Assembly: GCA_018240785.1 (NCBI GenBank)
Contig: JAFEFC010000016.1
Coordinates: 1 to 64,000, forward strand
Direction: 5' to 3'
Origin: Pseudomonadota bacterium
GTDB lineage: Bacteria > Pseudomonadota > Gammaproteobacteria > Burkholderiales > Rhodocyclaceae
Length of the DNA stretch: 64,000 nt
Positions 39,642 to 53,959 of this stretch are shown here, piece after piece. How positions within the stretch are numbered: position 1 is the stretch's first letter; each line of letters begins with the position of its first letter. Made by a program: the position numbers and the translations under genes. Below the pieces are notes generated by a model, which did no database searches, was not told the origin of the DNA, and saw nothing but the letters and a program-made list of their open reading frames with translations.

Positions 39642-40079
39642 TCACACATCGACCACGCACTGCGCCAGCCACCGGCCGTCGGGCTGCTGCATGACTTTCA
39701 GCTCGCAGAACGACGCACCCTTCACCTCGGCGGCCGGCTGGTGGCGGGCGACATCGACCGCCTCGCCCCAGGCCGCCGCGCGCAGGCGCAGCCCCGCGTC
39801 CTCGGGCGCGATGTCCACCTCGAAGCGCGCGAACAGCATGCGCCGGGTGGCCATCTCGAACACCAGCGCGTTGAGCCAGTCGAGCAGCAGCAGTTCCACC
39901 TCGGGCGCCGCGCACTCGATCGCGACCGGCTCGCGCGCGGCTACCGCGGCCGGATCGCAGATCGCCGCCGTCATCGCGGTGGCGGCGCCTGAGAAGGCCT
40001 CGGCCAGCGTCGCGCCAGTGCCACGCACGCCGACGTCGGCTTCGTGCGGAAAAGTCTCCCAGGCGGCCTGTGTGGCCAT
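39642..40079 (-). CDS. Archease (RtcB activator)
   Basis: This encodes 145 residues of the archease family: WETFPHEADVGVRGTGATLA at the N-terminus, LLLDWLNALVFEMATRRM in the middle and EVKGASFCELKVMQQPDG near the C-terminus. The metal-binding Asp of HEADVGVRG is retained. Archease speeds RtcB guanylylation and turnover. The gene is 30 bases upstream of rtcB on the same strand, so they form one unit. Confidence 0.94.
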   Translation of the reverse strand: MATQAAWETFPHEADVGVRGTGATLAEAFSGAATAMTAAICDPAAVAAREPVAIECAAPEVELLLLDWLNALVFEMATRRMLFARFEVDIAPEDAGLRLRAAAWGEAVDVARHQPAAEVKGASFCELKVMQQPDGRWLAQCVVDV

Positions 40080-40115
40080 GTTCGCTTCAGCCCTGGTCCA
40101 GACCCTGGCCCGCCG

Positions 40116-41726
40116 TCACATCTCCTCGCCGCCCGGCAGGCCGCCCGCCGGCTGCGGCAGTTCGGCCACCAGGCAGTCGGTGGTGAGGATCAGGCCCGCC
40201 ACCGAAGCGGCGTTCTGCAGCGCACTGCGCGTGACCTTGCACGGGTCGAGAACGCCCATCGCCATCAGGTCGCCGTATTCCTCGGTGGCGGCGTTGAAGC
40301 CGAACGCGCCACTGCCGGCCGCCACCCGATCGAGCACCACCGACGGCTCGAGGCCGCCGTTGGCGACGAGCTGGCGCAGCGGTTCCTCCACCGCACGCAG
40401 CACGATCTGGAGGCCGCAGTCCTCGTCGTGGTTGGCGCCGTGCAGCGCGCCCAACGCCCCGCGCGCGCGCAGCAGCGCCACGCCGCCGCCGGGCAGGATG
40501 CCTTCGGCCACTGCGGCGCGCGTCGCATGCAGCGCATCCTCGACGCGCGCGCGGCGTTCCTTCATCTCGGACTCGGTGGCGCCGCCGACTTTCACCACCG
40601 CCACGCCGCCGGCCAGGCGCGCGATGCGTTTCAGCAGGCCCTCGCGCTCGTAGTCGGAGCGCATGTCATCCATCTCCGCGCGGATGCGGGCGATGCGCGC
40701 CTCGATCAGTGCGTGCGCGCCACCGCCGCCGACCAGCGTGCAACTGTCCTTGTCCACCTCGATGCGGCGGGCGCTGCCCAGTTCGGCCTCGGTCGCATGT
40801 TCGAGGGTGAGGCCGGTTTCGCCACTCACCAGCGTGGCGCCGGTCAGCACCGCGATGTCTTCCAGCACTGCGCGCCGCCGTTCGCCGAACTCCGGCGCCT
40901 TCACCGCGCAGGCTTTCAGCGTGCCGCGCACGGCGTTCACCACGAGCAGGGCCAATGCCTCGCCCTCGACCTCCTCGGCGATCAGCAGCAAGGGCCGCCC
41001 ACTGCGCGCCACCGACTCCAGCACCGGCAGCAGGTCGGTCACCGCGCCGATCTTGCGGTCGCACACCAGGATGGCGGCATCCTCGAGCACCACGCGCGCA
41101 CCCTCGGTGTTGATGAAATAGGGCGACAGGTAACCGCGGTCGAACTGCATGCCCTCGACCACCTCCAGCGTGCTCGCGAGGCCCGAGCCCTCCTCCACGG
41201 TGATCACGCCTTCCTTGCCGACGCGCTCCATGGCTTCGGCGATCAGCTCGCCGATGGCGCTGTCGTTGTTCGCCGAGATGCTCGCCACCTGGGCGATCTC
41301 GACGCGCGTCTCGCAGGGCCGCGCCATCGCCTTCAGCGCGCCGACCAGCGCCTCTACGGCCTTGTCGACACCGCGCTTCAGGTCCATCGGATTCATGCCG
41401 GCGGCGACGTGCTTCATGCCCTCGCGCACGATGGCAGCGGCCAGCAGCGTCGCGGTGGTAGTGCCGTCGCCCGCCACTTCGGACGTGCGCGCCGCCACTT
41501 CGCGCACCATCTGCACGCCCATGTTCTCGAAAGGGTCCGACAGCTCGATCTCGCGCGCGACGACGACGCCGGAGTTGATCACGATGGGCGGACCGTAAGG
41601 CCGCTGCAGCAGCACCGTGCGGGCGCGCGGGCCCAGGGTTTCCTTGACCGCGTCGGCCAGCAGCGAGACGCCGCGCAGGATGCGGTGGCGCGCCTCGTCG
41701 CGGAAAAGCAGTTGCTTGGCTGTCAT
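40116..41726 (-). CDS. groL: Divergent GroEL-like chaperonin (no GroES partner nearby)
   Basis: This encodes 536 residues from ATG 41726. It is a full-length Hsp60: [20 protein letters not shown], the ATPase motif [35 protein letters not shown] and [20 protein letters not shown]. It differs from housekeeping GroEL by replacing TLGPKGRNV with TLGPRARTV and by lacking the GGM-repeat tail, ending [14 protein letters not shown]. No groES gene adjoins it. It is probably a second, stress-linked copy, in line with its rtcB/archease neighbours. Confidence 0.92.
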
Positions 41727-41778
41727 CGTCGTTTTTCTCCTCTCCCTGTTCAGCACGCGCGCCCGCCGCATGGGACCG

Positions 41779-42447
41779 TCATTGCGGCGGCGGTGTACCG
41801 CCTCCGGCCGGCCGCGCAGCCGCACGGCGGCGATGTTCGCGCAGGCAGTCGATCACTTCGTCGTCCTCGACCTGCCAGAACTGGCTGTAGAACTGCCCCA
41901 CCGCGCGGAAGTCCCATGGTGCGTACAGGCACACCACCTCGTCGGCGTAGGGCTCGACTTTCTTCAGGCTGTCCGGCGCACCCACCGGCACCGCGCAGAC
42001 CAGCTTCTGCGGCCCCTGGGCGCGTACCGCATGCAGCGCGGCGATCATGGTCGCGCCGGTGGCGAGCCCGTCATCGACGATGATCACCACCCGGCCGCGC
42101 GGATCGATCGGCGGCCGTTCCGGCGAATACTGCGCTCGGCGCTGATGCAGGCCCGCCAGCCGGCGCGCCTTCTCTTCCTTCAGCCAGGCCTCGTCGGCTT
42201 CGGACGGGTCGGACACGAAGGACCAGCCGCTCTCGTCGATGGCGCCGATCGCATATTCCGGGCTCCAGCGCGAACTGAGCTTGTGCACCAGCACGACGTC
42301 GAGCTCGCCCTGCAGCGCCTCGGCCAGCGCCGCACCCATCGGCACTGCGCCGCGCGGGATCGCAAGCACCAGCGGGTTGGCGCCGCGATACGCCGCCAGG
42401 GCGTCGGCCAGCTTGCGCGCGGCATCGATTCGATCGATGAAGATCAT
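41779..42447 (-). CDS. Phosphoribosyltransferase-domain protein (type I)
   Basis: This encodes 222 residues. The PRPP-binding loop is [20 protein letters not shown], and a Rossmann-type core precedes it ([20 protein letters not shown]). It resembles the stand-alone PRTase-domain proteins found near stress and dormancy genes rather than a named purine or pyrimidine salvage enzyme. It has an unusual Pro/Gly tail ([10 protein letters not shown]). It lies 12 bases from the next PRTase gene. The substrate is unknown. Confidence 0.85.
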
Positions 42448-42459
42448 CCTTGCCTCCGC

Positions 42460-43026
42460 TCAGGCGGCGCTGCGCGGCTGCAGCAGTTCGATGCGGAACT
42501 CCGGTTCATACGGTGGCACGTTGCACTCGATGATGTCCTCCGCCGCGATGTCGAGGCGCACGCCGGCCACGTCGGCATGCACCGGCAGGCAGGCGACGCC
42601 ACGGTCGACCAGCACCGCGACGAGGATCCGCGCCGGCTGCCGTCGCGCCAGATGATCGACCACGCGCAGCAGCGAATGGCCGGTAAAGAGCACGTCGTCG
42701 ACCACCACCAGCGTGCGCCCTTCGAGCGCCGGCAGCGGCTGCCGCTCGTCCTCGGACAATTGCGTCTCCGGGTGCAGCAGGGTCAGATCGTCGGCGTAGC
42801 GCTTGACCTTCAGGTCCACCCGCAGCGGCAGCGGCACGCCCGGGTGCCGCCGCAGGCAGTCGACAATGCGGTCGGCCAGCGGAGCACCGCGGCGCAGGAT
42901 GCCGACCACGATGGCAGGCTCGCCGCCGGACAGCAGGCCGGCGAGCTTGCGCGCCATGTTATCGACGATGACGCACGACTGCGCCGTGTCGTGGAGGCAG
43001 GTACGAAGGCCGGCGGGTCGATCCAT
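42460..43026 (-). CDS. PyrR-like phosphoribosyltransferase
   Basis: This encodes 188 residues from ATG 43026, which has GAGGA upstream; the much longer frame (to 43296) runs into the divergent intergenic region. The PRPP loop is RTLVVVDDVLFTGHSLLRVV, and the flanking IVVGILRRGAPLADRIVDCL and LPLRVDLKVKRYADDL segments are PyrR-type. PyrR proteins are uracil phosphoribosyltransferases or pyr-operon regulators, but no pyr gene adjoins here. It is the first gene of the minus-strand stress operon. Confidence 0.82.
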   Translation of the reverse strand: MDRPAGLRTCLHDTAQSCVIVDNMARKLAGLLSGGEPAIVVGILRRGAPLADRIVDCLRRHPGVPLPLRVDLKVKRYADDLTLLHPETQLSEDERQPLPALEGRTLVVVDDVLFTGHSLLRVVDHLARRQPARILVAVLVDRGVACLPVHADVAGVRLDIAAEDIIECNVPPYEPEFRIELLQPRSAA

Positions 43027-43306
43027 GCTTTCCTCGCGCGATGAGGATGCTGCGGGTGGCTGCCGCGGCGCGATGCCGCAGTTCTGAGCGGCAGCGGATG
43101 GGTCTAGACTGAACGAAACCATCCGGCCGACAGGGTAAAAATCTACTCCTGTTTTGCCAGCGTAGACCATGCCATGCGACGACATGGCGCAACCGGATCG
43201 ACACCGCGCGCAGCGCAGTGCGCCGCTGCGGCGACGGCGCGCCGCTCTGGCCGGGGAACCGAAAGGGCCGGATGGCGCGGCTTGTGCGCGCCGCAAGGAG
43301 AAGACG
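43027..43306. promoter_or_regulatory. Divergent intergenic region between PyrR-like gene and pncA
   Basis: This 280-base gap lies between divergently transcribed genes and should hold promoters for both directions. It contains an AT-richer patch at 43130-43160 (gggtaaaaatctactcctg) and an 8-base palindrome gtctagac at about 43106-43113, with a partial match cgtagacc at about 43161-43168. These could be operator half-sites. No sigma-70 pair was convincing. No gene is seen. Confidence 0.4.
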
Positions 43307-43939
43307 ATGCCTCAACACAGTCGCTCGCGCCCCGGGGGTAGAGACCAGCACCTCGCCTTGCGGGCCGGAGACGCTCTCGTGGTGGTCGATGTCCAGCGCG
43401 ACTTCCTGCCCGACGGCGCGCTAGGTGTGCCTGACGGCGATGCGGTGGTGCCGGTGCTGAACCGGTGCATCGAACGGTTTGGCAGCTTCGATCGGCCCGT
43501 CGTGCTGTCCCGCGACTGGCATCCGGCCGACCACTGCTCGTTCCGCGACCAGGGCGGCCCCTGGCCGCCCCACTGCATCGCCGGCAGCGACGGCGCCGAG
43601 TTCGCGCCTGGGCTGGCCGTGCCCGCCCGCGCCCACATCGTGTCGAAGGCCACGACCGCGCAGTCGGACGCCTACTCCGCCTTCCAGCGCACCGGCCTCG
43701 GCGAGCTGCTGCGCAGCCTGGGCTGCGGGCGCCTGTTCATCGGCGGCCTGGCGACCGACTACTGCGTGCTCGCCACCGTGCGCGATGCGATCGGCGAGGG
43801 TTTCGACGTCGTGGTGCTGCGTGACGCAATGCGCGCGGTGAATGTGCATCCCGGCGACGGCGAGCGTGCCGAACGGGACATGGCCGACGCCGGCGCCGAA
43901 CTGGTCACCAGCAGCCAGCTCGTCGGTGGCGGCACATGA
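43307..43939 (+). CDS. pncA: Nicotinamidase
   Basis: This encodes 210 residues from ATG 43307 with AAGGAG upstream; the longer frame from 43169 lacks a ribosome site. It is an isochorismatase-fold enzyme that hydrolyses nicotinamide to nicotinate. The triad is visible: Asp in LVVVDVQRDFLPDGALGVP, Lys in HIVSKATTAQSDAYSAF and Cys in GLATDYCVLATVRDAI. Metal ligands fit SRDWHPADHCSF and PWPPHC. It overlaps the next gene by 4 bases (ATGA), forming a salvage operon. Confidence 0.95.
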   Translation: MPQHSRSRPGGRDQHLALRAGDALVVVDVQRDFLPDGALGVPDGDAVVPVLNRCIERFGSFDRPVVLSRDWHPADHCSFRDQGGPWPPHCIAGSDGAEFAPGLAVPARAHIVSKATTAQSDAYSAFQRTGLGELLRSLGCGRLFIGGLATDYCVLATVRDAIGEGFDVVVLRDAMRAVNVHPGDGERAERDMADAGAELVTSSQLVGGGT

Positions 43940-45285
43940 GCGAGTCCGCGCTGCTCACCGACCTGTACGAGCTCACCATGCTGCAGGCGTACCACGACGA
44001 GGGCATGAACGACAGCGCGGTATTCGAGCTCTTCGTGCGCGCGCTGCCGCCGCAGCGGCGCTTCCTGATGCTGGCCGGCATCGAGCAGGTGCTGGACTAC
44101 CTCGAGAACCTGCGCTTCACCACCGCCGAACTCGACTGGCTGCGCGCCACCGGGCGCTTCCGGCCAGCCTTTCTCGATGCACTGCGCGATTTCCGCTTCA
44201 CCGGAGAGGTGCACGCGATGCGCGAGGGCACGGTGTTCTTCGGCGACGAGCCGGTGCTGCGCATCGAGGCGCCGATCGGCGAAGCGCAGTTCGTCGAGAG
44301 CCGGCTGATCAACCTGGTCAATTACTGCTCGCTGGTCGCGACCAAGGCCGCACGCTGCGTGCTCGCCGCACCGCGCAGCCTGCTCGTCGACTTCGGCCTG
44401 CGCCGCGCCCACGCCGGTGAAGCCGGCCTGCTGGCAGCGCGCGCCAGCTTCCTCGCCGGCTTTGCCGGCAGCGCCACGGTGCTGGCCGGCCAGCGCTTCG
44501 GCGTGCCGGTGTTCGGCACCATGGCCCATTCCTACATCGAGGCGCACGAGCTCGAGACCGACGCCTTCGAGCAGTTCTCGCTGTCGCAGCCGGGCAACGT
44601 AACCTTGCTGATCGATACCTACGACACCGAGGCGGCCGCCGCCAAGGTGGTGGCGCTGGCGCCGTCACTGCAGGCGCGCGGCGTGAACCTGGTGTCGGTG
44701 CGCCTCGACAGTGGCGACCTCGCCGACCATGCGCGCCGCGTGCGGGCGATCCTCGACGCCGGCGGACTGGCGAACGTGCGCATCTTCGCCAGCGGCAACC
44801 TGGACGAGTACCGCATTGCCGCGCTGCTGGCGGCGGGCGCGCCGATAGACGGCTTCGGCGTCGGCACCCAGCTCACCACCTCGGCCGATGCGCCGGCGCT
44901 GGATTCCGCCTACAAGCTGCAGGTCTATGCGGGCCGCGCGCGGCGCAAGCGCTCCGAAGGCAAGGCGACCTGGCCGGGGGCAAAGCAGGTGTGGCGCAGC
45001 GTGGATGTGGAAGGACGATTGACACGCGACCTCGTCGCCCTTGCCGACGAGCCCGCGCCAGTTGGCGCCTGGGTGCCGCTCCTGCGACCCGTCATGCACG
45101 CGGGCAAACGCCTTGTGCCGCCGGAACCGCTGACCGCATTGCGCACGCATGCCGCCACCGAACTTGCGCGGTTGCCTGCCGCGTTGCGCGAACTCGATCC
45201 TGGGGTGGGTTCGGACATCTACCCGGTAAGCATTTCGGACGGACTGCAGGCGCTCGCGCTACAGCTCGATCGCTCGACGCATTGA
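43936..45285 (+). CDS. pncB: Nicotinate phosphoribosyltransferase
   Basis: This encodes 449 residues. It converts nicotinate and PRPP to nicotinate mononucleotide in the Preiss-Handler NAD pathway. Family marks are LLTDLYELTMLQAYHDEGMN, LVDFGLRRAHAGEAGLLAAR, PVFGTMAHSYIEAHE (the phosphorylatable His) and LVSVRLDSGDLADHARRVRA plus IDGFGVGTQLTTSADAPALD. It is coupled to pncA. It ends 69 bases before the terminator of the convergent DGR operon. Confidence 0.95.
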   Translation: MSESALLTDLYELTMLQAYHDEGMNDSAVFELFVRALPPQRRFLMLAGIEQVLDYLENLRFTTAELDWLRATGRFRPAFLDALRDFRFTGEVHAMREGTVFFGDEPVLRIEAPIGEAQFVESRLINLVNYCSLVATKAARCVLAAPRSLLVDFGLRRAHAGEAGLLAARASFLAGFAGSATVLAGQRFGVPVFGTMAHSYIEAHELETDAFEQFSLSQPGNVTLLIDTYDTEAAAAKVVALAPSLQARGVNLVSVRLDSGDLADHARRVRAILDAGGLANVRIFASGNLDEYRIAALLAAGAPIDGFGVGTQLTTSADAPALDSAYKLQVYAGRARRKRSEGKATWPGAKQVWRSVDVEGRLTRDLVALADEPAPVGAWVPLLRPVMHAGKRLVPPEPLTALRTHAATELARLPAALRELDPGVGSDIYPVSISDGLQALALQLDRSTH

Positions 45286-45346
45286 CCGTTTCGTCCTTCC
45301 CATACCAAGGGCTGTCCGCCAACTCGCGGAAATCCCGTTTCTATCG

Positions 45347-45394
45347 AGAAAACGGCGCCTGCCACCGGCCGTTCGGCCGATCAAGGCAGGCGCC
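45347..45394 (-). terminator. Intrinsic terminator downstream of the DGR template repeat
   Basis: A perfect 10-base inverted repeat (GGCGCCTGCC at 45354-45363 and GGCAGGCGCC at 45385-45394) encloses a second palindromic pair (CGGCCG at 45366-45371 and 45374-45379). Read on the minus strand the stem is followed by GTTTTCTC. This fits a Rho-independent terminator for the DGR transcript. It probably also blocks pncB read-through from the other side. It may define the 3' end of the template RNA, about 90 bases beyond the TR. Confidence 0.7.
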
Positions 45395-45480
45395 GCCCAC
45401 TGCGCTCGCACCCATGCCCCTGGACCCTTCCTGGCACTACGCCGTGCTCCATGAAGTGCGGCGCTTGCGCGCGGAGGGTG

Positions 45481-45600
45481 CGGGCAAGACGGAAACCCGA
45501 GTTGTTGTTGCGGTTGTCGGGCGTGTTCCTGTTGCGGTTGGCCGAGCGCGCGTTGTCGGGGTTGTTGTTCCAGCCGCCGCCGCGCAGGACCCGGCGTTCT
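45481..45600 (-). repeat. DGR template repeat (TR)
   Basis: This aligns without gaps to 47242-47361. Over the 116-base core (45481-45596 against 47242-47357) all 18 mismatches are at adenines of the TR coding strand; G, C and T positions are identical. The coding strand has 11 AAC codons (reading [17 protein letters not shown] and on to [11 protein letters not shown]), the usual signature of a DGR template. Three further A mismatches extend the match to 45600, the last base of the RT stop codon. At the other edge a C in TR corresponds to a G in VR (45480/47241), as expected for an IMH*/IMH boundary. Confidence 0.97.
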
Positions 45601-46745
45601 CAGGGCATGGGCGCCTCCACCGACGTCCCGTCCGCCCACAAGGGGTCGAACCAGCCGCCTTTGAAGAGGGTATGACGCAAGCGCACGGTGTCGGCATGGG
45701 TCGCATGCGCGACCCATCCGCCGACGCGGGCACGAACCTCGTCCGCCGAGGCCGCGCCGGCCCGCCAGTGCGCACGCAGCGTGTCGAGCCGGCTGCGGAA
45801 GCGCGTCACGTTCTGCGGAAGCAGGCGACGCCGCCCGCCCGGAAGCAGTTCGAAGCCGAGAAACTGCTGAGGCTGCGCGGTGGCCACCACCGCCGTCTTC
45901 TGCGGGTGCAGGATCAATCGTCGGCCGCAAAGATACCGCTCGATGCACTGGCGCCATTCAGTGAGTTGCGCGGGGCTATCAGCAAACAGCGCGAAGTCAT
46001 CCACGTAGCGCAAATAGGGCGCTCGCAGCACCTCCGTCACCCAATGGTCAAAGGCATCGAGATGCACATTGGCGAAGAACTGGCTGGTCAGATTGCCCAG
46101 CGGCAGACCGCGGCGACGGCTCGCCGGGGTAAAGAGGTCGTCACCCGGAAAATAGCGCTCGGCCGGCTCCTGCGGATTGGAGCCATCGATGATCGTGTCG
46201 CACAGCGCCAGCGTGCGCGCGCAGCCGATACGGCGACGCAAGTCGCGCTTCAGCACCGCATGATCGATGGACGGGAAGAACCGCCAGATGTCGGCACGCA
46301 GCACATGCGCGTGATGGTCGCGCAAGCGCTCGAAGCGCGCCACCGCGCGATGGGTGCCCTTGCCGACCCGGTTGGCGTAGCTGTGATCGATGAAGCCGCG
46401 CTCGAACAGCGGACCGATTACCGCCACCAGAGCATGGTGCACCACCCGGTCGCGAAACGGCGCAGCGCTCACCACCCGCCGCTTGGGGTCGCGCACCACC
46501 AGCTCAAGATAGCGGCCGGTGCGGTAGCTGCCATCCTGCAACTGCGCTTCGAGGCGCAGCAGCTCCCGCTCCAGATTGGCCTGGAACGCCGCCGCGCCAG
46601 GCTTGCGCCGCTTGCCGGCAATGGCGCGTGCCGCCGCCGCATGCAGTGCGCCAAAGGTGGCGACGCGGTCGAACAACCCATCATGTCGACACGGCACGGC
46701 GGCTTCCCGAGGCGTCACCCGAATGGCCGCGGCCGACTCGTGCAT
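45600..46745 (-). CDS. DGR reverse transcriptase
   Basis: This encodes 381 residues from ATG 46745 (MHESAAAIRVTPREAAVPCR); the start is uncertain because it overlaps avd by 65 bases, and GTG 46697 is an alternative. RT motifs: HVLRADIWRFFPSIDHAVL (motif A aspartate), RRGLPLGNLTSQFFANVHLD (the LGxxxSQ motif typical of DGR enzymes), PYLRYVDDFALFADS (YVDD catalytic motif) and LILHPQKTAVV. There is no maturase, RNase H or endonuclease domain. It copies the TR RNA with adenine-directed errors into the VR. The stop codon abuts the TR. Confidence 0.96.
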   Translation of the reverse strand: MHESAAAIRVTPREAAVPCRHDGLFDRVATFGALHAAAARAIAGKRRKPGAAAFQANLERELLRLEAQLQDGSYRTGRYLELVVRDPKRRVVSAAPFRDRVVHHALVAVIGPLFERGFIDHSYANRVGKGTHRAVARFERLRDHHAHVLRADIWRFFPSIDHAVLKRDLRRRIGCARTLALCDTIIDGSNPQEPAERYFPGDDLFTPASRRRGLPLGNLTSQFFANVHLDAFDHWVTEVLRAPYLRYVDDFALFADSPAQLTEWRQCIERYLCGRRLILHPQKTAVVATAQPQQFLGFELLPGGRRRLLPQNVTRFRSRLDTLRAHWRAGAASADEVRARVGGWVAHATHADTVRLRHTLFKGGWFDPLWADGTSVEAPMP

Positions 46746-47187
46746 CGCCGCGACTGGCGAGATCGCTGCGGAGCCAGCCGCCGACCATCCTGCCGACCTC
46801 GTCGATCGAGCGCGCGGCATGCTCGTAAGCCTTGAGATCGAGGTGGCGCAGATCCTTCGCCAACCGCACGCCGAAGCGCATCTTCTCCAGCCCCAGGTTG
46901 GCCGCGCGTAGCTGCGGCTCGCGGTCGCGCGTGTAGGTCGCGTTGATCAGATGCTCGAGTACGTCCAGTGCTTCGTTCTGCAGACGGTCGCCAAGCAGGA
47001 ACTTCTGGCTGCGGGGAAACTTCTCCAAGGTCGGAATCAACCACAGCAGCAAGCGGTACATCGCCTCGAGCGCCGGCCCGCCGGCGCGCGCGGCGGCCTG
47101 GCGCTCGCCCCCCGAAGACCTGCGCCCACGCGGCGCTGGCGGGGGCTCCGCCCCCGCACCCCCGTTCGATTCCGCTGCCTGACTCAT
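46681..47187 (-). CDS. avd: DGR accessory variability determinant (Avd)
   Basis: This encodes 168 residues from ATG 47187 (MSQAAESNGGAGAEPPPAPR; GGGAG upstream). The frame extends to 47229 but into the VR gene. The four-helix-bundle core, residues ~50-150, fits the Avd/23S-intervening-sequence family: LEAMYRLLLWLIPTLEKFPR, KFLLGDRLQNEALDVLEHLI and EKMRFGVRLAKDLRHLDLKA. An N-terminal Gly/Pro/Arg-rich extension of ~45 residues is longer than usual. Avd forms a basic pentamer that binds RT and template RNA. It lies between the variable-protein gene and the RT gene. Confidence 0.92.
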   Translation of the reverse strand: MSQAAESNGGAGAEPPPAPRGRRSSGGERQAAARAGGPALEAMYRLLLWLIPTLEKFPRSQKFLLGDRLQNEALDVLEHLINATYTRDREPQLRAANLGLEKMRFGVRLAKDLRHLDLKAYEHAARSIDEVGRMVGGWLRSDLASRGDARVGRGHSGDASGSRRAVST

Positions 47188-47225
47188 CGCTGTCTCCCTG
47201 TGGCAAGAGGTAAAGGGGTAAGGAT

Positions 47226-48428
47226 TCAAGGCGTAAGGGTCCGGGCAAGACGGAAACCCGAGCCGCCGACGCGGTAGTCGGGCGAGTTCCTGCTGCGGCC
47301 GGCCGAGCGCGCGAGGACGGGGATGCTGACCCAGCCGCCGCCGCGCAGGACCCGGCGAACGTCCTTACACTCCGTCTCCCAGGCCTTGCCGTCGCGCGGC
47401 GCCCCCGCATAGTTGTCGTGCCAGCAGTCCTGCGTCCACTCCCAGGCGTTGCCCGCCACGTCGTAGAGGCCGAAGCCATTCGGCTTGTACGACTTGACCG
47501 GCGCCGTGTAAACCTGGCCGTCCGCGCAATCGGCAGCGATCCAGTCCTTCTGCCAGCCCTTGAGGCCATCGCGCGTCGTCCGATCACCCACATTGGCATG
47601 GGCGCACAAATCGTCGTCGCGGTCACCGAAAAAGAAGCGCGTGGTGCTGCCGGCGCGCGCCACGTATTCCCACTCCGCTTCGCTCGGCAAGCGGTATTGC
47701 TGGCCGGTACGGGTGCTCATCCAGCGCGCGTAGGCCTGGGCGTCGTTCCAGCTTACGCACACCACCGGATGCTGATCGGTCTGCTTGAAGCCGGGATTGC
47801 GCCAGTCGGCGCCGGGAACCTGAACGTACTTGTCGCCGGCCCAGATGTAACAGCCGCCACTGGTGTCATGCTTGGTCTGCTGCACGAAGGCGGCGAACTC
47901 GCCGCGGGTGACTTCGGCCTCCATGACCGCGAAGCGGTAGGCGATGGCGACTTCGTGCTGCGGGCCCTCGTCTTCGCTGCGGCCGGCCTCGCCGGCCGGC
48001 GAGCCCATGGCGAAGCGGCCGGACGGCACGACGACCAGCCACGGGCAGGTGCCGTCGCTGCAGTCGCGCAGGCGGGTGCCGGGCGGGTAGTCGCCCGCCC
48101 TCTCGACGGCCGGTGCGGCAGCGGGTGCAGGCTGGGTCCAGCGCCGCACCGCGTCCGGCACGACGAAGGGCGCGACCACGCCGGCGCCGAACAGCAGCGC
48201 CAGGCCGAACCAGAAACCCCGCCGCAGCCAGGTGCGGCGCAGCGCGAGTTCGCCACCGGGCAAGGGGTACAGCACCGGCCGCACATGGTCGCGCCAGCGC
48301 GGCGCCGGTGGGGGCGGGAGCAAGGGCGGCGGCGCACCGGCGGACGGCTGCGGCGCCGATGCGGCAGGCGCGTCCGCGACGCCCGGCGATGCGGCCATCT
48401 TCTTGCGGACAGGAGCGGGGGCAGTCAC
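47226..48428 (-). CDS. DGR variable protein: membrane-anchored FGE/C-type-lectin-fold protein
   Basis: This encodes 400 residues. A Pro/Ala-rich N-terminus and an Arg-rich stretch (LALRRTWLRR) precede one membrane segment at ~71-90 (GFWFGLALLFGAGVVAPFVV), predicting N-in topology with the C-terminal domain in the periplasm. Residues ~130-397 form a formylglycine-generating-enzyme-like domain (SGRFAMGSPAGEAGRSEDEG, YRLPSEAEWEYVARAGSTTR, GLYDVAGNAWEWTQDCW). The last ~40 residues are the VR. The FGE active-site cysteines are absent from [20 protein letters not shown], so ligand binding rather than catalysis is expected. The start overlaps the TIR gene stop (ATGA). Confidence 0.93.
   Translation of the reverse strand: MTAPAPVRKKMAASPGVADAPAASAPQPSAGAPPPLLPPPPAPRWRDHVRPVLYPLPGGELALRRTWLRRGFWFGLALLFGAGVVAPFVVPDAVRRWTQPAPAAAPAVERAGDYPPGTRLRDCSDGTCPWLVVVPSGRFAMGSPAGEAGRSEDEGPQHEVAIAYRFAVMEAEVTRGEFAAFVQQTKHDTSGGCYIWAGDKYVQVPGADWRNPGFKQTDQHPVVCVSWNDAQAYARWMSTRTGQQYRLPSEAEWEYVARAGSTTRFFFGDRDDDLCAHANVGDRTTRDGLKGWQKDWIAADCADGQVYTAPVKSYKPNGFGLYDVAGNAWEWTQDCWHDNYAGAPRDGKAWETECKDVRRVLRGGGWVSIPVLARSAGRSRNSPDYRVGGSGFRLARTLTP
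47242..47361 (-). repeat. DGR variable repeat (VR)
   Basis: This encodes residues ~357-396 of the FGE-fold protein. Compared with the TR at 45481-45600, codons AAC, GAC and ACG have become GTC, AGC, ATC, GTC, CTC, GGC, AGC, TCG, TAC, GTC, GGC and GGC. That gives 12 amino-acid changes, all from adenine substitutions. The invariant 3' stretch TCGGGTTTCCGTCTTGCCCG is shared by TR and VR and is the likely initiation-of-mutagenic-homing site. The VR ends 13 bases before the end of the gene. Confidence 0.96.
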
Positions 48429-51199
48429 GGCGCTGGCTCCCGCCCGGCGCGGCGACTATCCTCGCCACGCAAATAGCGGCCGATTTCGTCGGCCAGACGT
48501 TCGAGCACGGCATCGCCCCCTTGGGGAGGCAGCGCGACCGCGTGGCGCGAGGCCAACTCGCGTATCGTCTCGGGCAAATCCATTGCCGCAGGCATGCGGG
48601 CGCCCTCGACCAGCACTGGAATCACGAGCTTGTGCAGTGCCAACGACGCGGCGGTCTCCTCGATACGCCATGTGCCCCACGTGCCGTCGGCAAAGGCCCG
48701 CGGGCCGATGAACACCACCATCACCTTGCAGCGCTCGACAGCATGGCGGATTTCGTCGAGCCACGCTTGCCCGGCCTCGATCCTGCCGTCCCACACGCTG
48801 TTCATACCGAATTTCGCCACCAGCCGCTCCCGCAGCGCCTGCGCCGGCGCTTCGGCCTCGCTGCGGCTATAGCTCAGATAGACCATGCCGCCATCAGCCG
48901 TTGTTGTGGTTTGGCCGGGGGGTTCCGAGTCGACGTCCGCTTCGGCTTCCGCGCCGGGCTGGCCCCCGTCCTCGCCCCGAGGCCGACGCTCGGCGCGCGT
49001 CGCCAAACGGCGGGTAGCGAGCCGCAACCGCAAGCTCTCCAGCCACCACCGCAGCCACAGCAGCGCAAAACCCGCCGTCAGCACCGCGGCGGCGACCCAG
49101 CGCAGCGGGTTGCGGCTCAGGCGCAGGCCGCTGTCGGCGCACGCGGCGCGGGCAAAGGCTTCCGGCGCGTCGAGCGTGAGCTCGGCATCGAAGTCGCCGC
49201 GCAGCACCCCCAGATAGATCACGTCGCGCAGCGGGCTGTCGGCGGGCTCGTCCTCCACCACGCCGGCGAGGCGGATGCGCCGGCGCAGGCGCGCCAGCCA
49301 CGCGCCGCGCGACGGTTCGGCGGCGCTTGCCACCACCCCGAGCGACAGCGCCCCCGCGGCGTCATCGGCGCCGGCGGCGTCGAACAGGCGCGCGAACAGG
49401 ATGCGCACCTGCTCGCGCACGCCGGGCGGCAGGCTGAGGAACAGCGCACGCCGCAGCCAGTCGGGCATGTGACCGTGACGACACCATGGCAATTGCGCGA
49501 TCGCCAGCAGGCGGGCCTCCAGCAGGCGCACATCCGGCCGCGCCCGCGCCGAACCCGCCTCCGCCGGCAGCGCGACATCGGCAAACGCATCCGCCTGCGC
49601 CAGATACGCGGTCAGATCGGCCGACATCTGCGGGTAGGCCGCGCTCGCGGCCAGCCAGGTGTAGGGCGTGACGCCAAGATAGGCGCGCAGTTGTTCGAGC
49701 AGCGCCTTCAGCTCGCCGGCGTCGGGCGGGTCGGCTCCCAGCCAGCGCACCGGGTCGTCCCGCAGCAGCGGCGGCAGCACCGCCGGCGCACCGGGCAGGG
49801 CCGCGACTTCGGGCAGCTCGCCGGCCACGAACCAGCGCACCGCGGCGCTCAGGGCATCGATCTGGCCCGGCAGCAGCAGGAAGGACGGCGCCTGCGTCGG
49901 CTGCCCGGCGCCGGCGAGAACGTCTTCGGCCGCGCCCCAGCTTGCCAGAGGCACCGGTGTCATCAGCACACGGCATGGCCACGGTGCCAGCGCTTCGGCC
50001 AGCCAACTGTGCAGGCTGGCGCTGGCCGGATCGATGAAGCCGTAGCCATCGGCGAACACGATCAAGCCCTGCCCGGCATGGCGGGCCGCGAGCCGGGCCA
50101 GCGGCACGAAGTGCTGCGGCGGACCGGCACTGAGGCTGCGATGCAGACGCAGCGGCGCCACCCAGCGTGGGTCGCGGTCGAATTCGTACAGCGTGAGGCC
50201 GACCCCTTCGGCGGCGAGGTCGCGCGCCATTTCCGCGGCCCAGTGCGCTTGCTGGTCGCCCGGGCCGGCACGGTCGACGAGGAAAAGATATTCCGGCCGC
50301 GCCAGCCGCGGCCGATGGACCGGCGAGAACAGCCCCGCCCGCGCCGCGGTGGCGCACGCGCTGGCGATGACGTCCAGTGTGCGGCCTGCGGCGGTGCGCG
50401 GCCGGCGCAGGCCGCGCACCGCCGTACGCAGCGCGGCGCGGCGCTCCCCCGACACCGGCACGAGCTGGCGGGCGAAGACCTCCTGCTCGCGCAGGTTCTC
50501 GCGCGTGGACACGCGCGCGAGCTGCGCCCGCCGCGTGCGGCGCACGAACATCGCCGGGGCGCCGAGAAGCGCGACCGCCGCCGCATACCAGGCCGGGTGG
50601 ATGCCGAACAGCCAGGGCGGGGCCTGAAGCTGGATTTCGGTCTGACCGGCCTTGTCGGCGGCACGCGGCAGCTCGACCTGCGCGCCGGTGGGCGCAGCCG
50701 CACCGGGCACCGGTCGCGACGGCGCCGGCACGCTGGCGGAGGGGCTCCCCAATGTCGCGAGGCGGTCGCGGACGTACGGAATGGCCAGCGGCAACGCGAT
50801 CGCGACGAGGACCGCCGCCAGGACACGCTGCCTTGTTGCCCACCGGTGAAGGCCGGCGTGAGGGTCGGCACGTGGCCGCGCCACGGCCGGAGACGCCTCC
50901 TCGCTCGCGCTGGCCGGCGTGCCCAACAGCTCGCAGCCCTCATCCCAGCGCAAGCGCCAGGCGTCGAACACCTGGTCGAACACCTGCTGCTCGCGCGCGG
51001 ACTTGCTGACGATGGCGCGCACGGCGCCCTGTGCGCTGCTCGGATCGGCGCCGAGCAGGCCGCGTTCCTGCGCGGCATTCAACCAGGCTCCGAGGTTCAG
51101 CCACGTGCGCGCGTCGATGTGCAGGCCGTGCGCCTGCAGCTCGGGCAGCAGGCGCTCGCGCAGCGCATCGAGCCAGGCGGGCGGATGGCCGTTGTCCAT
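48425..51199 (-). CDS. Multi-pass membrane protein with C-terminal TIR domain (conflict-system component)
   Basis: This encodes 924 residues. A helical N-terminal domain (~1-95) is followed by membrane segments at about 126-143, 205-220 and 695-715. Between them is a Rossmann/vWA-like region (EYLFLVDRAGPGDQQAHWAA, GVGLTLYEFDRDPRWVAPLR, GQGLIVFADGYGFIDPASAS). The C-terminal ~145 residues are a TIR domain (GMVYLSYSRSEAEAPAQALR, CKVMVVFIGPRAFADGTWG) with the candidate catalytic Glu in TWRIEETAASLAL. It could cleave NAD or act as a signalling adaptor. It is encoded in an operon with a MoxR ATPase and the DGR variable protein. The overall architecture is not one I can name. Confidence 0.8.
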   Translation of the reverse strand: MDNGHPPAWLDALRERLLPELQAHGLHIDARTWLNLGAWLNAAQERGLLGADPSSAQGAVRAIVSKSAREQQVFDQVFDAWRLRWDEGCELLGTPASASEEASPAVARPRADPHAGLHRWATRQRVLAAVLVAIALPLAIPYVRDRLATLGSPSASVPAPSRPVPGAAAPTGAQVELPRAADKAGQTEIQLQAPPWLFGIHPAWYAAAVALLGAPAMFVRRTRRAQLARVSTRENLREQEVFARQLVPVSGERRAALRTAVRGLRRPRTAAGRTLDVIASACATAARAGLFSPVHRPRLARPEYLFLVDRAGPGDQQAHWAAEMARDLAAEGVGLTLYEFDRDPRWVAPLRLHRSLSAGPPQHFVPLARLAARHAGQGLIVFADGYGFIDPASASLHSWLAEALAPWPCRVLMTPVPLASWGAAEDVLAGAGQPTQAPSFLLLPGQIDALSAAVRWFVAGELPEVAALPGAPAVLPPLLRDDPVRWLGADPPDAGELKALLEQLRAYLGVTPYTWLAASAAYPQMSADLTAYLAQADAFADVALPAEAGSARARPDVRLLEARLLAIAQLPWCRHGHMPDWLRRALFLSLPPGVREQVRILFARLFDAAGADDAAGALSLGVVASAAEPSRGAWLARLRRRIRLAGVVEDEPADSPLRDVIYLGVLRGDFDAELTLDAPEAFARAACADSGLRLSRNPLRWVAAAVLTAGFALLWLRWWLESLRLRLATRRLATRAERRPRGEDGGQPGAEAEADVDSEPPGQTTTTADGGMVYLSYSRSEAEAPAQALRERLVAKFGMNSVWDGRIEAGQAWLDEIRHAVERCKVMVVFIGPRAFADGTWGTWRIEETAASLALHKLVIPVLVEGARMPAAMDLPETIRELASRHAVALPPQGGDAVLERLADEIGRYLRGEDSRRAGREPAP

Positions 51200-51202
51200 G
51201 GC

Positions 51203-52213
51203 TCAGGCCGGGGCGACACCTGCCACCAGCGGGTGGCGGCTGGCCGCGAGCTGGTCCTCGGGCGCCTTCACCAGGGTCGCCAGCACGCGCCGCGCCAGCT
51301 CCGGCGGCAAACCCGTTGCCGATCTGGCGGCGGGATCCAGCGCCAGCGCGGAGACGAAGGCCAGAAACTCGGCGGTCGACGGCGGCTTGCGCAAGTCGTA
51401 GGCCGGTGAGCGCAGCGCAAAGAACAGCTCCAGCGCCTTGTCCAGCATCGGGCCGGATTCGACCTTCAATGCCGCAAGCCGGCGCAGCGTGATCGCCTGC
51501 ATCCGTTCGCGGGTGATCGGCTGCAGGTGGTAGAACACGCAGCGCCGCAAGAAGGCATCGGGCAACTGCTTCTCCGAGTTGCTGGTGATCACGACGATGG
51601 GCCGCTGCCGGCTGGCAGCGTGGATCTCCAGCCCGCCGGCGACTTCGCGCACGCGAAAGTAATGGCGCTCGATCTCGTTCAGCGCGTCGTTGGGAAAATC
51701 GCTTGGCGCCTTGTCGATCTCGTCGATCAGCACCACGGCGCGGCACGGACCGCGATACCACAGCGGCAATTGTTCGGGGCGGAACAGCTTGCGCGCGTCC
51801 TCGGCCGCCAGGCTTTGCACCACGGCCTTGCCCAACGCGCCGTAGTCGACGAAGCGCAGGGGGTGCAGCGCATCCTCGTCCTTGCTGACCTGCGCCGCCT
51901 GAAAGCGGGCGACGTGATCGAAGGTGTAGAACAGGTCCTGGGCCACGCTGGTCGATTTGGTCTCGAACTTGAACAGTTGTAAACCGAGTTCGAGCGCCAG
52001 CTTTTCGCCGAGCTGCGTCTTGCCGGTGCCCGGCTCCCCAGTCAGCAACAACGGCTGGTCGAGCAGCAAGGCGGTATTGACCGCGTCGCGCAGGCCTTCC
52101 TCGGCATCGTAGTTGTCGGCACCGAAGAAGCGGTCGCGATCGATGGAGTCGATCTCGACCGGCGCGCCGGCAGCGACCAGGCCGGGACGGCCCTGAAACC
52201 AGTTTGCGGACAT
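51203..52213 (-). CDS. MoxR-type AAA+ ATPase
   Basis: This encodes 336 residues from ATG 52213 (MSANWFQGRPGLVAAGAP; GGGAG upstream); the frame reaches 52240 without ribosome site. Walker A is LLTGEPGTGKTQLGEKLALE, Walker B AVVLIDEIDKAPSDFPND, and a sensor/arginine region follows in VVITSNSEKQLPDAFLRRCV. MoxR ATPases usually work with a vWA protein as chaperone or switch. Here the likely partner is the vWA-like/TIR protein encoded 3 bases downstream. In NTP-dependent conflict systems such ATPases are thought to gate effector activation. Confidence 0.9.
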   Translation of the reverse strand: MSANWFQGRPGLVAAGAPVEIDSIDRDRFFGADNYDAEEGLRDAVNTALLLDQPLLLTGEPGTGKTQLGEKLALELGLQLFKFETKSTSVAQDLFYTFDHVARFQAAQVSKDEDALHPLRFVDYGALGKAVVQSLAAEDARKLFRPEQLPLWYRGPCRAVVLIDEIDKAPSDFPNDALNEIERHYFRVREVAGGLEIHAASRQRPIVVITSNSEKQLPDAFLRRCVFYHLQPITRERMQAITLRRLAALKVESGPMLDKALELFFALRSPAYDLRKPPSTAEFLAFVSALALDPAARSATGLPPELARRVLATLVKAPEDQLAASRHPLVAGVAPA

Positions 52214-52236
52214 GAAGACACTCCCTGTTGATTCGT

Positions 52237-53652
52237 TCACGCAGCGCGAATCCAGTCGCGCGCCTTTTCAGCGAAAGTCCGCATCGACCAAGTGGCACGA
52301 TCCTGCGGCAGGCGGGACAGAAGGACTTCCATGTCCTCGGCCAGCTTGCCCTGCACGTCGTCATGCATCGACCAGTCGTAGATCGCGAGTTCATCGAGTT
52401 CGGGCAGCGAGCCCAGTACCGCGCCCTCCACCTGCACCGCGGCGGCGATCGCAGCATCGAACATCTGCGCAAGACGGCTGCGCTCGCCCGCCGCCGTGCC
52501 CGCCGCGCGCACCACGTTGATCGCGACCACCAGCAGCGCGTGCTGATTGAGGTCCGGCCAGTCGGCGAGCACGCCGAGCAGGCCATCGAACGCGAGGCCG
52601 GCCTGCCCGGCGTCAGACACTTCCAGACAATCCACCCATAACAACGTCGGCTGGGCGCGATACAGAAACGCGTCGCGGATTTCGCTTTCGGTCGCCAGCG
52701 GGCGCGGTCCGAGCGCGGTGGCGAGAGCGCGCACGAAACGTTGTCTGGCGTCAGCCGGCGAACTCAGCCGCACCGCTTTCGATGGCCAGGCGAGCGGCTT
52801 GAAATGGCCGAAGGACAAGCCGGTGTGGTCGAAACCGAGACAGCGGGCAATTTCCTTGAGCCGCATGCGTTCGACCCACTTCGCCAGGCAGTCCTCAGGC
52901 CGCCCCTCGGTGACAGCGACGAGCGGCCGGCGGAACCCCCTTCCCTGCCACTCTCCCAGCCGAACCAGCAAGGCATCGAATTGATCGCTCCGGTTGCACA
53001 GATAGGGCAGCCAGCTCGTGGCCAGTGCAGGGCCGGCGGGGACCGCAGCGGCCAGCGCTGCGGGGGCTTCGCCCTGCGCCGCCGCGGCAGACGCCGGTGT
53101 GCCATCCGCGCACAGGGCCGTTTCGATCTGCGCCACCACCACATGCCACGCGTCCCGCTTACGGGAATCCGGCCACAGCGAAATCGGCTTGAGGCCCAGA
53201 CGCGGCCCGATCGCTGTGTCGACCTGATCCTGCGGCAGGCATTGGCGGTCCTCCAGCGACACACGGACGCCATCGACGTCGACGAAGAAGTTCGCCAGAT
53301 TCAGTTGATGCAGCGCGATCCCGATCACGCGTACTCGGTGCTCCCGCGTGCTGCGCTCCAGCATGCGGCGCAATTCGACGTCACGGCAGAACTCGGAGGC
53401 GATGAACGGCGTGCTCATCAACACCAGAAAGACGTCTGCCGTGTCCAGCGCCTCGGCGATTCTTTCCTTCCACCGGTCACCGGCCATGAGCTGGCTGTCG
53501 CCCCTGGAGTCGAGGAAGACGGCGGTATCGCCGAGGCGCCGGCACATCGCCTCGAGTTCCATATGAAGATTGAGCGCGTCAGCATAGTCGGCATGGCAAT
53601 AGGAGATGAAGATCCGGCGCCCGGCGACCTGTCTCGTCTTCGGCATCGGCAT
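52237..53652 (-). CDS. TIR-domain protein with C-terminal STAND-like region
   Basis: This encodes 471 residues. The TIR domain occupies ~12-150: RRIFISYCHADYADALNLHM, MAGDRWKERIAEALDTADVF and LVLMSTPFIASEFCRDVELR, where the Glu of the last motif is the candidate NADase residue. After a linker, residues ~215-471 begin LPYLCNRSDQFDALLVRLGE and contain QPTLLWVDCLEVSDAGQAG, resembling the inactive STAND-type region described in bacterial conflict proteins; no Walker A is visible. The ATG has GAGGAG upstream. It is the first gene of the island operon. Domain naming after residue 200 is tentative. Confidence 0.8.
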   Translation of the reverse strand: MPMPKTRQVAGRRIFISYCHADYADALNLHMELEAMCRRLGDTAVFLDSRGDSQLMAGDRWKERIAEALDTADVFLVLMSTPFIASEFCRDVELRRMLERSTREHRVRVIGIALHQLNLANFFVDVDGVRVSLEDRQCLPQDQVDTAIGPRLGLKPISLWPDSRKRDAWHVVVAQIETALCADGTPASAAAAQGEAPAALAAAVPAGPALATSWLPYLCNRSDQFDALLVRLGEWQGRGFRRPLVAVTEGRPEDCLAKWVERMRLKEIARCLGFDHTGLSFGHFKPLAWPSKAVRLSSPADARQRFVRALATALGPRPLATESEIRDAFLYRAQPTLLWVDCLEVSDAGQAGLAFDGLLGVLADWPDLNQHALLVVAINVVRAAGTAAGERSRLAQMFDAAIAAAVQVEGAVLGSLPELDELAIYDWSMHDDVQGKLAEDMEVLLSRLPQDRATWSMRTFAEKARDWIRAA

Positions 53653-53959
53653 CGCCCGTTCTCCTCTTCACTACGCAGGACATGGGTCCGCTGTCGTCTG
53701 GCCATCAACCCGGCCGCCGCTACCGCCACTCCAGCGAAAGGAAGTGCCCAACCGTCGGACTTTATTCCCGCTCTCGCGGGAATGATGAAGCCGGCAAACT
53801 CAAAGGTTCCCTGGTCAAGTAGCGCGAAGCGAGTTCGCCTCCATCCCTTCTGAATACTAGTTGAGCAACGCGAACGCGTCACCGTGAAGACGGGTATCGC
53901 GCGGACATTGCGACGCCGCCGTTCTGGCTGATGGCGTGCCGCTTGCTTCCGCAGCAGTG
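53653..53959. other. Intergenic upstream of the TIR operon; REP-like hairpin, no gene
   Basis: This 307-base gap between tamA and the island operon has no supported gene. It contains the REP-like hairpin at 53764-53783 and should include the promoter of the minus-strand TIR operon. TTGACC and TTGAGT hexamers are present on the minus strand near 53800-53820, but neither has a convincing -10. The edge of the inserted island probably lies here. Confidence 0.5.
53764..53783. repeat. REP-like palindrome
   Basis: An 8-base perfect stem (ATTCCCGC / GCGGGAAT) with a TCTC loop. Translated, the surrounding sequence gives FIIPARAGI, a common by-product of dispersed palindromic elements of the ATTCCCGC type in beta- and gammaproteobacteria. 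It is the only copy I noticed in the window. It could also serve as a terminator. Confidence 0.6.

What the first reader, a model, noticed from the sequence alone, without database searches (positions are those of the whole stretch)
45481..47361. Complete diversity-generating retroelement with an adenine-only TR/VR mismatch pattern
I aligned 45481-45596 with 47242-47357 by eye, without gaps. All 18 differences fall at TR adenines of the coding strand, and no G, C or T differs. The TR is rich in AAC codons (11). RT (YVDD, LGNLTSQ) and Avd genes lie between VR and TR. This is the hallmark of adenine-directed mutagenic retrohoming, and the divergence implies the element has been active.
Basis: seen in the sequence. 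Interest (0 to 1): 0.95.

Follow-up and report, generated by a model that had tools for sequence, protein, structure and literature searches.

The report
Mutating retroelement beside a defence-like operon
A bacterial chromosome carries a complete diversity-generating retroelement that rewrites one patch of a membrane-anchored, sensor-like protein; the element is of a known kind, but its template RNA ends in a conserved folded tail that hints at where DNA copying starts.

Summary
45481-45596 and 47242-47357 differ at 18 sites, all template adenines (18 of 26 A, 0 of 90 other bases); the adenine-only run extends to 120 nt (21 of 29 A, 0 of 91 others) and stops at a C/G mismatch at 45480. RT (YVDD, LGNLTSQ), Avd and an FGE/C-type-lectin target are present: a genuine cellular DGR, new member of a known kind. 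Close RTs are rare (6 of 399 order genomes at E<=1e-60, own included). It adjoins a TIR - MoxR-like - vWA-like operon resembling published putative conflict systems; in L003, L026 and L027 the VR domain is fused to the vWA-like protein, here it is separate and TIR takes that place. Its conserved GUCCA is a plausible self-priming site explaining the 45480 boundary; that part is speculative. Activity today is unproven: one genome, one VR.

The parts
45481..45600 (-). template repeat (TR), 120 nt adenine-only segment; 29 A, 11 AAC codons in the VR frame
45480..45480 (-). first non-A TR/VR mismatch (TR C, VR G); 3' boundary of the adenine-only homology, IMH*-like
   Evidence: the corresponding base also differs in L003, L026, L004, L053, L027
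45349..45485 (-). structured RNA tail directly 3' of TR (models R1/R2)
   Evidence: covariation; hits
45424..45479 (-). hairpin A of the tail (ACCC...GGGU base; apical CATG)
45421..45427 (-). GGGTCCA; A45421 is the proposed self-priming adenosine (inference)
45349..45394 (-). hairpin B followed by TTTT, possibly also the transcription terminator here
45600..46820 (-). DGR reverse transcriptase ORF (probable start GTG at 46697, from alignment with L003)
   Evidence: Pfam RVT_1 1.7e-17; motifs and alignment; tree; starts
46681..47229 (-). Avd accessory protein ORF (probable start ATG at 47187)
47226..48428 (-). variable protein: one hydrophobic segment (residues 72-90) plus FGE-sulfatase/C-type-lectin domain (128-396), 8 Cys
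47242..47361 (-). variable repeat (VR) at the C-terminal end of the variable protein
47202..47241 (-). CTT-rich pyrimidine tract immediately 3' of VR
   Evidence: pattern defined post hoc
47139..47157 (-). 8-bp GC hairpin (loop GGA) 84 nt 3' of VR, inside the Avd ORF; possible distal counterpart of the BPP-1 target hairpin
48425..51199 (-). 924-aa protein: vWA-like region (homologous to L003/L026/L027), hydrophobic segments, C-terminal TIR
51203..52240 (-). MoxR-like AAA+ ATPase
52237..53652 (-). 471-aa protein with N-terminal TIR and unassigned C-terminal region

Best explanation
A complete cellular diversity-generating retroelement. The RT-Avd complex copies the TR RNA, starting from a priming point in the folded tail just 3' of the TR and misincorporating opposite A, and the cDNA replaces the VR of the FGE/C-type-lectin protein. 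That protein is most likely a membrane-anchored sensor of the adjoining TIR - MoxR - vWA-like operon, a putative defence (abortive-infection type) system. Shown here: the parts, the mismatch pattern, past TR-to-VR overwriting, operon conservation in three other loci, RNA covariation. Inferred: the RT-Avd-RNA mechanism (from BPP-1), priming at A45421, topology, sensing and TIR effector function.
For: Adenine-only mismatches, 21 of 29 A and 0 of 91 non-A; RT motifs and family; Avd; FGE-fold target; BPP-1 recovered by the same method; RT grouped with cyanobacterial plasmid DGRs, with BPP-1 and VP58.5 outside; gene order TIR-MoxR-vWA-like-FGE-Avd-RT in L003 and L026 and in L027, where the TIR is seen by Pfam only; TR/VR non-A mismatches within loci 0 of 91, 0 of 89, 0 of 89, 3 of 90, against 8-20 between the window TR and the other TRs; RNA tail covariation.
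Against: One genome and one VR: no population variants. No phage or defence experiment. Three close-RT loci, L004, L052 and L053, show no MoxR-like or vWA-like match in the stretches fetched, and the L053 target is a caspase-FGE fusion, so the DGR is not tied to this operon. The vWA assignment rests on a homologue (VWA_CoxE 2.8e-5 in L026, below its cut-off), not on a hit in the window protein, whose structure model was unusable (pLDDT 42.7). No VMAP or iSTAND hit. Canonical hairpin next to VR absent. The proposed primer A45421 faces C, not U, unlike BPP-1.
Confidence: 0.8

Rival explanations
1. A true but now silent DGR: the pattern is a fossil of past retrohoming.
For: Only one VR state is known; decayed relatives exist (L071 without RT match, L072 without RT or Avd match and with transposase-like ORFs beside the RNA).
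Against: The RT, Avd and target ORFs are open; 0 of 91 non-A sites differ between TR and VR; the RNA tail scores 112.8 bits (but the window is in the model).
Confidence: 0.15
2. The diversified FGE protein is not part of the TIR-MoxR operon's function (for example a surface adhesin or signalling receptor), and the neighbourhood is incidental.
For: Here it is a separate gene with its own hydrophobic segment; close-RT loci L004, L052 and L053 have no MoxR-like or vWA-like match in the stretches fetched; in Legionella and Treponema the DGR targets are outer membrane lipoproteins (stated in PMC10907252, part 1).
Against: In L003, L026, L027 and decayed L072 the FGE domain is fused to the vWA-like protein downstream of a MoxR-like gene; in the window the FGE and 924-aa genes overlap by 4 nt.
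Confidence: 0.35
3. The repeat is an ordinary duplication with chance A-bias, not a DGR.
For: None found.
Against: p 2.8e-15 to 3e-17; RT, Avd and target type all present.
Confidence: 0.01

Closest known systems
Clade 5 cellular DGRs with MoxR-like ATPase context (Thiohalocapsa PB-PSB1 DGR 8 / clade 5A; Dore et al. 2024, PMC10907252, parts 1-5 of 9 read)
   Different: One RT and one short FGE target with a hydrophobic segment here; TIR is fused to the vWA-like protein. PB-PSB1 RTs were not in my tree, so no clade letter is assigned
MoxR-vWA ternary conflict systems, iSTAND and beta-propeller types (Kaur et al. 2020, PMC7159879, passages seen)
   Same: MoxR-like AAA+, vWA-like protein with hydrophobic segments, TIR and FGS (FGE) domains as parts; weak WD40-type hits in L003 and L026
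   Different: No VMAP or iSTAND hit; FGE encoded separately; no propeller hit in the window protein
Zoogloea MAG locus L003 (JADJBR010000010.1)
   Same: RT 77% identical, same gene order TIR-MoxR-vWA-like-FGE-Avd-RT-TR-RNA tail
   Different: vWA-like and FGE in one 1629-aa ORF; 3 of 90 non-A TR/VR mismatches
Bordetella phage BPP-1 DGR (L064)
   Same: A-only TR/VR, RT, Avd; the same priming score peaks at spacer 50-56 there and at an equivalent place here
   Different: TR lies between avd and brt in BPP-1, after RT here; BPP-1 has an 8-bp hairpin with GAAA loop next to VR, the window does not
Nostoc sp. UHCC 0926 and Fischerella sp. NIES-4106 plasmid DGRs (L061, L060)
   Same: MoxR-like ATPase, long FGE-containing protein, short FGE protein, Avd, RT
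   Different: Two VRs; RT about 46% identical; tail not found with R1 or R2

Membership tests
Diversity-generating retroelement | TR/VR pair with mismatches at template adenines | tested here: met
   21 of 21 mismatches at A in 120 nt
Diversity-generating retroelement | DGR-type reverse transcriptase with catalytic residues | tested here: met
   YVDD and LGNLTSQ; D177, D274, D275 invariant in 23 rows; PHROG reverse transcriptase 2.2e-101
Diversity-generating retroelement | Accessory protein (Avd) | tested here: met
   NCBIfam DivGenRetAVD 3.8e-30, above cut-off
Diversity-generating retroelement | VR in a ligand-binding fold, usually C-type lectin | tested here: met
   FGE-sulfatase 3e-63; Treponema variable protein 2y3c 1.3e-9; Foldseek PvdO 2.5e-18; but most of the VR part of the model (372-395) has pLDDT under 50
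Diversity-generating retroelement | Ongoing mutagenic retrohoming | not testable with these tools
   no reads or sister isolates; past overwriting only
BPP-1-type target site | 7-10 bp GC-rich stem with 4-nt GRNA loop 4-34 bp 3' of VR (PMC3240598, passages) | tested here: not met
   nearest stem in 150 nt is 8 bp, loop GGA, at +84; no fold next to VR. Not filed as BPP-1 type
Clade 5 DGR lineage | RT placement | tested here: inconclusive
   groups with Nostoc, Fischerella and L046 at 97/93, BPP-1 and VP58.5 outside; 23 rows, 7 open forks, BPP-1 on a long branch, no PB-PSB1 sequence
MoxR-vWA ternary conflict system | MoxR-like AAA+ ATPase | tested here: met
   AAA_5 5.1e-7, above cut-off; bpMoxR 0.0012, below cut-off
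MoxR-vWA ternary conflict system | vWA protein | tested here: inconclusive
   homologous to L026, which has VWA_CoxE 2.8e-5, below cut-off; no vWA hit in the window protein; model pLDDT 42.7
MoxR-vWA ternary conflict system | third component (VMAP, iSTAND, FtsH or beta-propeller) | tested here: inconclusive
   none of these names among Pfam hits up to E 5 for the 471-aa and 924-aa proteins; whether Pfam holds models for all of them was not checked

The most novel reading that the evidence does not exclude
The TR RNA of a branch of cellular DGRs ends in an uncatalogued structured RNA whose base helix holds a conserved GUCCA against the TR 3' end, so that its adenosine primes cDNA synthesis; this fixes exactly where the adenine-only homology stops, and a CTT-rich tract replaces the near-VR hairpin of BPP-1 as target mark. 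In part of this branch the element diversifies the sensor of a TIR-MoxR defence switch.
Probability: 0.4. Interest if true: 0.6.

Novelty: new member of a known kind. Interest (0 to 1): 0.4.

Why it matters
DGRs in cells, as opposed to phages, have few tested functions. This one adjoins a compact operon with predicted TIR effectors and has a single diversified sensor-like protein, with about 10^15.2 encodable variants, so the claim that bacteria hypermutate defence sensors could be tested at one locus. The RNA tail gives a concrete, mutable prediction of the priming nucleotide in a DGR far from BPP-1, and an RNA model that found such loci, decayed ones included, without a protein query.

Tried and rejected
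Rejected: duplication by chance; phage origin (the IMG/VR scan confirmed no relative; a 24-nt TR pattern found nothing in viral contigs; 45 phage records match the RT, all below 60% identity); a second VR elsewhere in the genome. Led nowhere: AlphaFold of the 924-aa protein; Rfam (one unrelated match below its gathering score in 43000-54500 at E up to 0.5; none at gathering in L071, L072, L052, L053); an iSTAND assignment.

RNA tail in distant DGRs: with R1 in 25 sources, 22 matches up to E 10, of which the six training sites and L027 (E 4.6e-4) stand out, the rest E 0.55 or worse. With R2 in 18 of those sources, only L058 (E 0.0077, exactly at its TR 3' end) is better than E 0.57. The genome-scale R1 search with stricter filters did not report L027's genome G051 at E 0.001. 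L005 has no TR in its short contig and L059 gave no TR/VR.

Priming score: 15 loci. Score 6 in six (window, L003 with two equal places, L026, L004, L053, BPP-1), shuffle frequencies 0.02-0.05 each; score 5 with a GYCCA word in L027, L057, L058, no better than shuffles (0.48-0.73); L060, L061, L062, L063, L046 also score 5, without that word at the top place and no better than shuffles (0.79-0.99); L052 was not properly scored, because my boundary rule stopped at an internal non-A mismatch. The rule was written after looking at the window and with BPP-1 in mind, so it is not blind.

CTT tract was defined after seeing it. 23 VR ends: enriched (0.007 of windows or fewer reach the count) in 11 (window, L003, L026, L004, L052, both of L027, L057, both of L060, L061), weaker in L046 (0.011), not enriched in L053, L054, L055, L056, L028, L029, L030, L031, L062, L063, BPP-1.

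The NAD-salvage genes downstream have no match in the fetched stretches of nine related loci.

My own split: about 0.98 for DGR identity, about 0.6 for the sensor role.
Full report
What is there. On the minus strand lie, in order, a 471-aa TIR protein, a MoxR-like AAA+ ATPase, a 924-aa protein ending in TIR, a 400-aa FGE-domain protein with the VR at its end, Avd, RT, the TR and a hairpin-rich tail followed by TTTT. Two neighbouring pairs overlap by 4 nt (52237-52240 and 48425-48428). Probable starts, from alignment with L003 and in-frame start codons, are GTG 46697 for RT and ATG 47187 for Avd rather than the longest ORFs.

The repeat. TR 45481-45600 and VR 47242-47361 differ at 21 of 29 A and at 0 of 91 other bases (10 A>G, 9 A>T, 2 A>C). 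The next base 3', 45480, is C in TR and G in VR. 15 codons of the VR frame contain TR A, 11 of them AAC; no stop can arise; about 10^15.2 proteins are encodable. A finder that tried every base and both roles listed nothing else in the window, and the same approach recovered the annotated BPP-1 pair. Roux et al. 2021 (PMC8144416, passages) report that TR/VR alignments overwhelmingly show at least 75% of mismatches at TR adenines; here it is 21 of 21.

Past activity. Within loci, TR and VR differ at 0 of 91 (window), 0 of 89 (L026), 0 of 89 (L004) and 3 of 90 (L003) non-A sites, while the window TR differs from those of L003, L026 and L004 at 8 of 87, 14 of 85 and 20 of 83. The VR therefore follows its own TR, as retrohoming predicts. 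L003's three non-A mismatches are the exception and may be drift or MAG error. Nothing here shows activity today.

RT and distribution. 23 RT rows including BPP-1 were aligned. In the tree the window joins L003 (100/100), then L004, L026, L052 and L053 (100/100 for six), then Nostoc, Fischerella and L046 (97/93); BPP-1 and Vibrio phage VP58.5 fall elsewhere, though 7 of 20 inner forks are open and BPP-1 has a long branch. At E<=1e-60, RTs were found in 6 of 399 order, 6 of 369 class and 4 of 398 phylum genomes; the sets overlap and the own genome counts in each. Among 28 same-genus genomes searched none has a close homologue (best E 4.3e-43, 44% identity, in G012), so horizontal gain is likely (inference).

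Operon. TIR, MoxR-like, vWA-like, FGE, Avd and RT homologues occur in the same order in L003 and L026. L027 has the same order, its TIR gene seen by Pfam only and its RT in another branch. [quoted passage not shown]); L027 has a second, short FGE gene. In the window that C-terminus is TIR and the FGE domain is a separate protein with one strongly hydrophobic segment (72-90) preceded by arginines and with eight cysteines, which suggests a periplasmic domain (inference). Against a fixed link, L004, L052 and L053, all with close RTs, show no MoxR-like or vWA-like match in the stretches fetched, and the L053 target is a caspase-FGE fusion. Kaur et al. 2020 (PMC7159879, passages) describe MoxR-vWA systems whose vWA component can carry TM segments and FGS or TIR domains; Dore et al. 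2024 (PMC10907252, parts 1-5 of 9) describe DGR-diversified FGE/C-type-lectin sensors next to MoxR and TIR. The window fits that theme; its vWA and third component are not proven.

RNA tail. Six tails (window, L003, L004, L026, L052, L053), aligned by sequence, give 32 pairs, 17 with changes on both sides and 94.7% of cells paired; no shuffle of 500 does as well on four of the five measures and 1 of 500 on the fifth; sliding the partners leaves 33-49% paired. A single-sequence fold of the window RNA alone is unremarkable (z -1.83). A model from the six (R1) found, in 25 sources, the six plus L027, directly at its TR end (E 4.6e-4). Over 399 order genomes R1 hit 6: own, G052, G065 and G193, all in the training set, and two new ones, G165 (1.6e-11) and G290 (1.2e-7); G051 (L027) was not reported there. 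Both new hits lie at decayed DGR-type loci. L071 (G165) has FGE and Avd remnants and, by eye, a TR-like A-rich stretch before the RNA, but no RT match and no A-only repeat. L072 (G290) has the MoxR-like and vWA-like-FGE genes, ORFs that I read as transposases between them and the RNA, and no RT or Avd match. With nine rows 19 of 32 pairs change on both sides, but that alignment was fitted to the model. R2, from the nine rows, hit 1 of 274 class genomes, the own one, and weakly L058 at its TR end (0.0077). In the nine rows GTCCA stands in 7 and its final CA in 9. No Rfam match overlaps the tail, and none reaches gathering in L071, L072, L052, L053.

Priming idea. In BPP-1 an adenine within the spacer 3' of the TR primes cDNA synthesis (PMC12875486, passages); that it is position 56 I recall, not from a call. 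A score for 'four pairs just 3' of the first non-A mismatch, free base at the mismatch, pair, then A' has its single best place in BPP-1 at spacer 50-56 and in the window at 45427-45421, GGGTCCA. The mismatch 45480 would then be the first base not copied, which would explain the 3' boundary seen at the same place in L003, L026, L004, L053 and L027. Against: shuffle frequencies are only 0.02-0.05 per locus, nine of fifteen loci do not reach the score, A45421 faces C and not U, and the rule was written with BPP-1 in mind.

Target side. BPP-1 needs a hairpin next to the VR, proposed to be conserved among DGRs (PMC3240598, passages). DNA folding finds it in BPP-1 (z -4.87) and not in the window (z +0.91); L053, of the window's RT group, does have an 8-bp stem right after its VR. 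The nearest window stem is 8 bp at +84 with loop GGA. Instead the 40 nt after the VR are CTT-rich (7 words; 0.0001 of 40-nt windows reach this), as at 11 of 23 VR ends examined, none of them phage VRs. This is post hoc.

Novelty. Searches of the held library for DGR with RNA structure, DGR RNA, covariance model or Rfam, pyrimidine or downstream of the VR, and Rhodocyclales genera (listings) showed me no title or abstract start reporting this tail or tract. The key structural paper (Handa et al. 2025) is not held, so the tail may be known in principle. Overall: a clean DGR of a known kind in an interesting place, with a testable RNA prediction.

Noticed in passing
window 43169-45285 (+): Isochorismatase-family (nicotinamidase-like) and nicotinate phosphoribosyltransferase genes, NAD salvage, lie convergently beside the TIR operon; no match in the fetched stretches of nine related loci.
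   Followed up: partly
window 39642-43296 (-): A Cpn60 chaperonin gene next to two phosphoribosyltransferase genes and an archease.
   Followed up: no
L053 8352-10082: Caspase (Peptidase_C14 1.1e-28) fused to FGE as the DGR target; the ORF stops inside the VR (10043-10146), possibly a frameshift.
   Followed up: no
L062 5223-8622: An Ideonella plasmid carries two Avd and two RT genes in tandem.
   Followed up: no
L072 2319-10602: MoxR-like and vWA-like-FGE genes and the RNA tail retained without RT or Avd match, with transposase-like ORFs between.
   Followed up: partly
L027 7960-10991: Two VRs on either side of one TR and RT, one in a short FGE protein and one in the vWA-like fusion.
   Followed up: partly
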